This document shows positions 2,018 through 2,386 of a stretch of 64,000 bases of DNA, piece after piece. This stretch comes from Chitinophagaceae bacterium IBVUCB2 (GTDB lineage: Bacteria > Bacteroidota > Bacteroidia > Chitinophagales > Chitinophagaceae), in the NCBI GenBank assembly GCA_002127295.1, contig NFUV01000001.1, forward strand, positions 1 through 64,000, in the 5' to 3' direction. The notes under the pieces are model-generated. The model was not told the origin of the DNA. It did not search any database and saw only the letters and a list, made by a program, of their open reading frames with translations. Made by a program: the position numbers and the translations under genes. The first letter of the stretch is position 1. Each line of letters begins with the position of its first letter.

Positions 2018-2092
2018 ATAGTATTGATTTTTAAGGTTTATTACGGGTTGCTTGTCAAAAAAGTTCGCAAAAATGGCCTAAAACAGCGTCCG

Positions 2093-2386
2093 GAAGCCTT
2101 CTTACCTTACCGGGTTGTTCGCTTACTTTACCGGAATGCTCTCTTACCTTACCGGGAAAGCAACTTAGTTTAAATGGAAGGTCACTTACCTCAACGGAAA
2201 GGTCGCTTACCTCAACGGAAAGGTAAATTATTAAAAAATTTTGGTCACTTGTTGTAAAAAAAAGGTTCCTTCTCTTAAAAGAAAGGTCACTTGCTTCAAA
2301 AGAAAAGCTACTTAGCTTAAAAGATTAGTCAATTACTTTAAAAGGAAAGCAATCTGTATTAACAGATTTGTCAATTATTTCGTTCA
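2093..2386. repeat. Degenerate tandem repeat, 14 units of exactly 21 bp
   Basis: The core CTTAC/CTTAG/ATTA word begins at 2101, 2122, 2143, 2164, 2185, 2206, 2227, 2248, 2269, 2290, 2311, 2332, 2353 and 2374, always 21 bases apart. A representative unit is AAAGGTCACTTACCTCAACG plus G. Units drift from GC-richer ones on the left (ending ACCGG) to AT-richer ones on the right (ending AAAAG). No frame gives a normal gene: the minus-strand frame is open for 89 codons (2324 to 2058) with a heptad pattern like S-V-E-V-S-D-L but has no ATG, GTG or TTG. Confidence 0.9.

What the first reader, a model, noticed from the sequence alone, without database searches (positions are those of the whole stretch)
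2093..2386. Fourteen repeats locked to exactly 21 bp upstream of an HTH gene
The core word falls every 21 bases from 2101 to 2374 with no slip, although the units are strongly diverged. Exactly two DNA helical turns per unit would place every copy on the same face of the helix. Strict spacing with diverged sequence suggests selection on phase, such as an oligomeric binding platform for the Xre-type regulator encoded 76 bp away. The alternative is a decayed heptapeptide-coding repeat: one minus-strand frame is open for 89 codons (2324-2058) with a heptad pattern but no start codon.
Basis: seen in the sequence. Interest (0 to 1): 0.72.

Follow-up and report, generated by a model that had tools for sequence, protein, structure and literature searches.

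The report
Phase-locked 21-bp array before regulator gene
A run of about 13 diverged DNA repeats, each exactly two turns of the double helix long, sits in front of a small regulator gene, and many relatives of that gene in other Bacteroidota carry their own version with different letters but the same 21-base step, which suggests a bacterial control platform in which spacing matters more than sequence.

Summary
In detail: thirteen full 21-bp units (2101-2373) plus a decayed edge, one register, no slip. Of 83 non-redundant homologues of the 116-aa HTH_26 protein, 77 have 21 as best upstream period. A clear array stands upstream in 60 of 67 outside one weak clade and in 0 of 16 inside it. Unit sequences are mostly unrelated. 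Pooled over 110 upstream regions, self-match peaks at exact multiples of 21 up to 147, while lags 1 bp off are flat. Units lack dyad symmetry. The arrays do not look coding. In 864 kb of this genome the two HTH arrays are the only strong 21-bp arrays.

Best reading: a phase-locked, direct-repeat operator platform for the adjacent regulator, giving cooperative autoregulation. Binding is inferred, not shown.

Main complication: in parts of two other genomes, G509 and G170, 21-bp arrays also lie beside many other genes, including convergent pairs. A second gene family (here A4) carries them with no such HTH gene in the fetched locus. The element may be broader than this regulator.

The parts
2101..2378 (-). 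Array of 21-bp direct repeats: 13 full units (2101-2373) and the start of a decayed edge unit; unit on the HTH gene's strand about GTGACCTTTCTTTTAAGGTAA
1667..2017 (-). 116-aa HTH_26 (Cro/C1-type) regulator gene; the array lies upstream of it
   Evidence: ORF; Pfam HTH_26 E 3.9e-6; model, mean pLDDT 88.1
2018..2099 (-). 82-bp leader between array and start codon, presumed promoter and ribosome-binding region (inferred)
   Evidence: promoter not tested

Best explanation
The array is a phase-locked operator platform. SHOWN: an array with exactly 21-bp steps stands upstream of most members of this HTH family outside one clade; units point one way (no dyad); unit sequence differs between most arrays and follows the protein only among closer relatives; informative positions change least in 4 of 5 related pairs; no coding signal was found apart from a small stop deficit. 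INFERRED: the HTH protein made by the adjacent gene binds one asymmetric site per unit. Because each unit is two helical turns (10.5 bp x 2), all copies sit on one face of the DNA, so neighbours can touch head to tail and load cooperatively as a one-sided rod that ends near the gene's own promoter. This would give steep, copy-counting autoregulation, most simply autorepression. Paralogues whose recognition words differ would have separate platforms; some paralogues in one genome do share a word, so insulation is not complete. Where a divergent A4-type gene lies on the other side of the array, the same platform could control both genes.
For: Family association: period 21 best of 16 in 77 of 83 non-redundant members; clear array in 60 of 67 outside the KYKN clade (the window gene and its paralogue are among the 67). 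Exact step: pooled lag z 61.5 at 21 and 22.2 at 147, with +-1 bp between -2.2 and 1.3 (110 loci, relatives not thinned, L109 repeats L088). Homologues from other classes 3 of 3, z 9.6, 4.5, 6.8. Own genome: the only strong 21-bp arrays in 864 kb are the two HTH arrays. No dyad: mean z 0.05, 2 of 62 at p<0.05. Unit similarity tracks HTH identity (Mantel r 0.31, p 0.001), more on the same strand than the opposite one. Substitution rate falls with unit information in 4 of 5 pairs. Unit-unit identity is almost flat with distance, 0.308 to 0.267 over 1-6 units in 70 arrays. No coding signal, apart from a small stop deficit told under the rivals.
Against: Many 21-bp arrays in G509 (29 calls in 800 kb) and G170 (12 in 400 kb) are not beside this HTH; 6 of 30 classified lie between convergent genes. 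Of 16 A4 loci with no such HTH in the fetched stretch, 11 have period 21 best, 8 strongly. Recognition-helix similarity predicts unit similarity no better than the rest of the domain (partial 0.075 against 0.107). Paralogues L084/L087 in one genome (84% identical) have unlike arrays. L006 and its presumed orthologue L151 (about 80% identical, 1 of 12 recognition-helix residues different) have arrays only 50% identical. Some paralogous arrays share a unit: L151 with the window's type (0.83), L138 with L139 and L111 with L133 in G509 (0.67, 0.66), which weakens insulation. In one search, three of the six other homologues (L002, with only 192 bp upstream held, L003, L004) show no array; 7 of the 67 have no clear one and the KYKN clade has 0 of 16. 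Flat unit similarity could come from gene conversion. Information was estimated from the same arrays.
Confidence: 0.53

Rival explanations
1. General class of 21-bp-step intergenic elements: the arrays are made or maintained by a genome-wide process or bound by a shared factor, and the HTH gene is only one of several kinds of neighbour.
For: 29 period-21 arrays in 800 kb of G509 against 1-2 at most other periods 15-30 (28 bp: 6), beside unrelated genes, some with 42-, 63- or 105-bp higher-order units; 12 in 400 kb of G170; A4 genes carry them without the HTH in the fetched locus. HTH and other arrays do not clearly share units (best 0.54, mean of 780 pairs 0.30, sd 0.08).
Against: In the window's own genome the sampled 864 kb shows only the HTH arrays as strong. 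HTH members in several families and classes repeatedly have one, upstream. A shared factor would need to ignore sequence, yet units are alike within an array.
Confidence: 0.29
2. RNA-level element: the array is transcribed as part of the leader and acts as repeated RNA.
For: Clear arrays outside the KYKN clade end a median 48 bp from the start codon, so part could be transcribed.
Against: Units lack dyad symmetry, which speaks against repeated hairpins; strict 21-bp phase with free sequence has no obvious RNA reason; some arrays lie between convergent genes in G509 and G170. RNA folding itself was not tested.
Confidence: 0.07
3. Ordinary minisatellite or MITE-borne minisatellite (as BrickBuilt in Porphyromonas gingivalis), kept in step only because it grows by tandem duplication.
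For: Tandem duplication preserves period; some G509 arrays show near-exact higher-order duplicates; the paralogue's array is bracketed by 10- and 15-nt inverted arms.
Against: No terminal inverted repeats as a rule: own-flank score 6.89 against 6.85 for mismatched flanks, 0 of 61 reach 11. Period 21 dominates the 15-30 range in G509. Substitutions are rarer at informative positions in 4 of 5 pairs.
Confidence: 0.07
4. Decayed or live heptapeptide-coding repeat.
For: 21 bp is 7 codons; a stop-free run of 89 codons covers most of the window array. HTH arrays hold slightly fewer stops than permuted columns, 1772 against 1875.7 +- 43.6. Open frames lie on the gene strand only in 12, the other strand only in 6, both in 4.
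Against: Fully open frames are no more frequent than with permuted columns: 22 of 61 against 25.8 +- 3.3 (HTH arrays), 15 of 24 against 15.0 (G509); no 3-bp phase in unit variability; no 3-bp periodicity upstream, unlike control windows.
Confidence: 0.03

Closest known systems
Plasmid iterons with Rep initiators (recalled, no paper read)
   Same: Direct repeats of about two helical turns next to the gene of the protein that binds them; phase matters
   Different: Iterons are near-identical and drive replication; here units are diverged, on a chromosome-sized contig, the protein is an HTH_26 regulator, no origin function known
Omega repressor heptads and ParR/parC or TubR/tubC arrays (recalled; one search gave only one listing, not read)
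   Same: Small DNA-binding protein loads cooperatively on a repeat array upstream of its own gene and autorepresses
   Different: Shorter steps, plasmid partition systems; no partition gene seen beside the window array
CylR2 and SaPI2 Stl (Cro/C1-type regulators with solved structures)
   Same: Closest solved relatives by sequence profile (Stl 8q86 E 1.1e-7; CylR2 2xiu E 0.09) and weakly by fold
   Different: Fold match weak (best E 0.05; none at 0.001); Stl is 232 aa; no repeat array known to me for either
BrickBuilt minisatellite MITE, Porphyromonas gingivalis (PMC4596501, abstract and outline seen)
   Same: Tandem intergenic repeat in a member of Bacteroidota
   Different: 23-bp unit, one sequence family found 19 times in one strain, inverted-repeat ends; here 21 bp, mostly a different unit at each locus, no inverted-repeat ends as a rule

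Membership tests
HTH_26 (Pfam PF13443) Cro/C1-type regulators | Match above the curated cut-off | tested here: met
   27.5 bits against cut-off 22; 49 of 50 aligned homologues match at E<=0.01
Iteron-type operator array | Direct repeats in one helical phase beside the gene of the presumed binding protein | tested here: met
Iteron-type operator array | Binding by the adjacent gene's protein | not testable with these tools
   needs EMSA or footprinting
Iteron-type operator array | Replication origin or plasmid location | tested here: not met
   Plasmid location only: window array is on a 2.26-Mb contig; no viral, phage or close plasmid homologue of the protein. Origin function not tested
Palindromic operator of a Cro/C1 dimer | Dyad symmetry in the site | tested here: not met
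   mean z 0.05, 2 of 62 arrays p<0.05
MITE-borne minisatellite | Terminal inverted repeats | tested here: not met
   0 of 61 arrays reach score 11, 0.6 expected from mismatched flanks; arms bracket the paralogue's array, which looked at that array and the window's only
Heptapeptide-coding repeat | Open frame kept, 3-bp periodicity | tested here: not met
   slight stop deficit noted
Partition centromere (parC/tubC type) | Partition ATPase or filament gene alongside | tested here: not met
   window neighbours are a DUF2059 gene and a peroxidase gene; neighbours vary among loci, not all of them named

The most novel reading that the evidence does not exclude
Bacteroidota hold an undescribed class of DNA element in which the invariant is geometry, not sequence: intergenic arrays locked to 21 bp (two helical turns), each usually with its own asymmetric unit, dozens in some genomes. 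They are read by array-specific small HTH regulators and shared with partner genes (A4 family), forming many largely separate one-sided nucleoprotein switches within one chromosome.
Probability: 0.32. Interest if true: 0.9.

Novelty: new variant of a known kind. Interest (0 to 1): 0.78.

Why it matters
It separates two things usually tangled in regulatory DNA: spacing kept exactly across classes of a phylum while the words are free to change. The members found here (83 non-redundant HTH proteins, 60 with a clear array) are a ready-made protein-DNA co-evolution set, and they make testable how oligomeric regulators use helical phase and how far paralogous regulators avoid cross-talk.

Tried and rejected
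Coding heptad repeat, MITE, palindromic operator and shorter direct half-units (mean z for shifts 1-10 between -0.33 and 0.25), 42-bp superperiod in fused double-HTH proteins (none of the 4 stands out; of 70 arrays only L110 shows a strong one), shared units between HTH and non-HTH arrays as a trans regulon (best 0.54, not convincing), phage or plasmid origin (no viral or phage relative; plasmid hits only Clostridioides at 28-34% identity). BLAST of the array against its own genome found itself and otherwise nothing better than E 0.098. Foldseek of the A4 protein gave only weak cupin-like C-terminal matches. Nine topical literature searches, several of which asked for many terms at once and returned nothing, showed no description of this arrangement in their listings; subscription papers are missing from the library. 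One search looked up PDB codes. The binomial figure assumes independent homologues, which they are not, so I do not lean on it.

Changes after checking against the calls: the stop deficit, the shared units within a genome, the 7-bp signal and the no-gap alignment are now told; because of the shared units and the stop deficit I moved the best explanation from 0.55 to 0.53, the general-element rival from 0.27 to 0.29, coding from 0.02 to 0.03 and the novel case from 0.35 to 0.32.

Rows dropped before counts: all listed places with E up to 1.3e-14 plus one weak one (G323, L106) were examined, the many weaker matches were not; one search skipped L002, L003, L004, L043, L104, L106, and L107 for short upstream (70 of 77 used); one search lost L104 and L107 (110 of 112 used); one search dropped L106, L128, L129, L130, L109, L091 and anything 85% or more identical to a kept protein; one search used arrays scoring 12 or more, one per group under 85% identity; one search used 61 HTH arrays and 24 of 29 G509 calls; one search classified 30 arrays: 21 of 29 from G509 (dropped: four beside HTH or A4, one inside a long frame, one low-complexity, the two weakest; one flagged inside a 170-aa frame was kept) and 9 of 12 from G170 (dropped: one between A4 and HTH, two inside frames). 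One search used the 30 loci returned of the longer match list.

Full report
OBSERVATION. The array is real and exact. Thirteen 21-bp units run from 2101 to 2373; each is best placed at shift 0 within +-10 bp when scored without itself. The period-21 score is 53.5 against at most 3.2 in 500 dinucleotide shuffles, and no other period from 15 to 30 exceeds 1.4. A decayed edge unit follows. On the strand of the HTH gene the unit reads about GTGACCTTTCTTTTAAGGTAA. The array ends 82 bp before the start codon of the 116-aa HTH gene (1667-2017, minus; Pfam HTH_26).

THE FAMILY TEST. A search of 58 relatives found a paralogue in the same genome and homologues in four other genomes. The paralogue (L006) and the homologues L005 and L007 each have their own 21-bp array upstream, with different units; L003 and L004 do not, and L002 has only 192 bp upstream. 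Larger searches covered 396 genomes of the order (168 with a match at E<=0.001; I examined all listed places with E up to 1.3e-14 and one weaker), 395 of the class (24 at E<=1e-9) and 296 of the phylum (6 at E<=1e-10). Of 111 loci scored (one a duplicate, L109), 70 have a clear array and 96 have 21 as the best of 16 periods (69 of 110 clear without the duplicate). Removing near-duplicates and marginal hits leaves 83: 77 with period 21 best, 60 with a clear array. In a clade with the KYKN motif signals are weak (13 of 16 have period 21 best, none clear); outside it 60 of 67 are clear. Median clear array there: 10 units, from -276 to -48 relative to the start codon. Controls: of 586 same-length windows elsewhere in the first loci, 6 pass z>5 and 44 rank 21 first, against 38 and 47 of 70 upstream windows. 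Three homologues from other classes, found after the pattern was defined, all have 21 as top period of 36, with z 9.6, 4.5 and 6.8.

NO SLIP. Pooled over 110 upstream regions, lag z is 61.5, 55.0, 46.5, 40.5, 35.1, 31.2, 22.2 at 21, 42, 63, 84, 105, 126, 147, while lags one base away lie between -2.2 and 1.3. Against a close relative (Chitinophagaceae MAG Bin_56_5, HTH 99% identical) the window array has 57 substitutions and no indel in about 280 bp; but the 338 bp beyond it has 70 substitutions and no indel either, and the aligner opened no gap anywhere, so this pair does not isolate selection on phase. L006 and its presumed orthologue L151 have arrays only 50% identical, best placed at offset 0 over 274 bp; L067 and L072 (55% protein identity by ungapped count) are 62% identical at offset 0 over 272 bp (offsets up to +-6 tried).

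WHAT THE UNITS ARE. No dyad symmetry in 62 arrays (mean z 0.05; 2 with p<0.05) and no clear shorter direct sub-repeat: the sites are asymmetric and head to tail. Unit-to-unit identity hardly falls with distance. In 4 of 5 related pairs substitutions are rarer at informative positions (rho -0.43 to -0.70; fifth pair +0.25, not significant); since information was estimated from the same arrays, this is suggestive, not proof. Unit similarity rises from the 0.4-0.5 bin of HTH identity upward, more on the same strand than on the opposite one, where a weak rise also appears (1891 pairs; Mantel r 0.31, p 0.001). The recognition helix alone does not predict it better than the rest. Members of the window's subfamily (L001, L006, L151, L063) share a TGACNNTT-like core (my reading). 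L151's unit is close to the window's (0.83, the highest of 1891 pairs), whereas its array is only 50% identical to that of its presumed orthologue L006, and two pairs of paralogous arrays in G509 share units (0.67, 0.66), so arrays in one genome are not always distinct.

NO CODING SIGNAL, NO MITE ENDS. Fully open frames occur in 22 of 61 HTH arrays against 25.8 +- 3.3 with permuted columns; total stops are slightly fewer than permuted, 1772 against 1875.7 +- 43.6. The 22 are open on the gene strand only in 12, the other only in 6, both in 4. No 3-bp signal. No inverted-repeat ends as a rule in 61 arrays.

SPECIFICITY IN THE WINDOW'S GENOME. In 864 kb (the window, one piece chosen for the paralogue, and 39 pieces sampled along the three contigs) the two HTH arrays score 61.4 and 51.7; the next period-21 hits outside long frames score 13.7 and 12.1.

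THE COMPLICATION. At 21 of 106 loci examined, the array region is bordered by a divergent gene of about 318 aa, here called A4. Of two A4 proteins scanned, one has no Pfam match and one a C-terminal CarboxypepD_reg domain; model m4edd8f2518a9 has mean pLDDT 89.2. In 20 genomes searched, A4 has up to 14 matches per genome and none in the window's. Of 30 A4 loci returned, all 14 with the HTH have period 21 best; of the 16 without it in the fetched stretch, 11 have period 21 best and 8 strongly (anatomy of those 8). A census of 800 kb of G509 gave 29 period-21 arrays, 2 inside frames and 1 low-complexity, 2 beside an HTH and 3 beside an A4 gene (one of these beside both). In 400 kb of G170 there are 12: 2 inside frames, 1 between A4 and HTH, and 3 upstream of small proteins that look HTH-plus-coiled-coil to me, though Pfam finds only weak coiled-coil matches in two and nothing in the third. 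Of 30 other arrays in these two genomes 12 are divergent, 12 codirectional, 6 convergent. Over periods 7-70, G509 shows 27 hits at 21, 24 at 42, 11 at 63, and also 10 at 7; 6 of those 10, and all 6 in G170, do not overlap a 21-bp array, so separate 7-bp stretches exist as well. So the element is broader than this regulator family. The simplest joint reading is a family of phase-locked platforms read by small regulators; a general 21-bp-step process is the main rival.

STRUCTURE. The HTH model (mean pLDDT 88.1) shows an N-terminal strand, an HTH bundle, a second strand and a C-terminal helix that could serve contacts between neighbours (inferred). Closest solved proteins: SaPI2 Stl (E 1.1e-7 by profile) and, weakly, CylR2; Foldseek gives no match at E 0.001 or below.

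VERDICT. Observation confirmed; the phase-platform reading is well supported by comparison, with binding unproven; the coding alternative is not supported.

Noticed in passing
G509 C2:1-400000 and C3:1-400000 (L226-L265): 29 period-21 arrays in 800 kb, mostly intergenic, mostly with different units (C2 189361 and C2 293268 share one, 0.76), some with 42/63/105-bp higher-order units; one beside a cas9-like gene (name by eye).
   Followed up: partly
L263:19316-19562 (G509 C3:359316-359562): A 21-bp array whose units flip to the opposite strand halfway while the 21-bp step continues.
   Followed up: no
L196-L225; for example L207, L218, L222: A4 family: multicopy helical protein genes with variable C-terminal domains, many with their own 21-bp array and no such HTH gene in the fetched locus.
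   Followed up: partly
L127, L144, L146, L147: Two HTH copies fused in one open frame, still with a plain 21-bp array upstream (no 42-bp superperiod).
   Followed up: partly
L272:6982-7374, L269:5998-6375, L273:15913-16272 (G170): Small proteins that look like HTH plus coiled coil (by eye; Pfam finds no HTH), each downstream of a 21-bp array: possibly a second regulator family with arrays.
   Followed up: partly
L006 against L151: Presumed orthologous regulators at about 80% identity whose arrays changed the unit consensus throughout, in register; the L151 unit resembles the window's more than L006's.
   Followed up: partly
G509 and G170 census stretches: Separate 7-bp-period stretches: 6 of 10 in G509 and 6 of 6 in G170 do not overlap a 21-bp array; could be low-complexity DNA or a shorter-step relative.
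   Followed up: no
L173:7967-8324: Inverted-repeat arms of 10 and 15 nt bracket the paralogue's array; not seen as a rule in other arrays.
   Followed up: yes
L091: HTH homologue broken by a stop codon, with its array still recognisable upstream.
   Followed up: no
L110: The one array with a strong 42-bp superperiod (alternate units alike).
   Followed up: no
plasmid hits: The only plasmid matches to the HTH protein are Clostridioides HTH genes at 28-34% identity over 57-59% of it.
   Followed up: no
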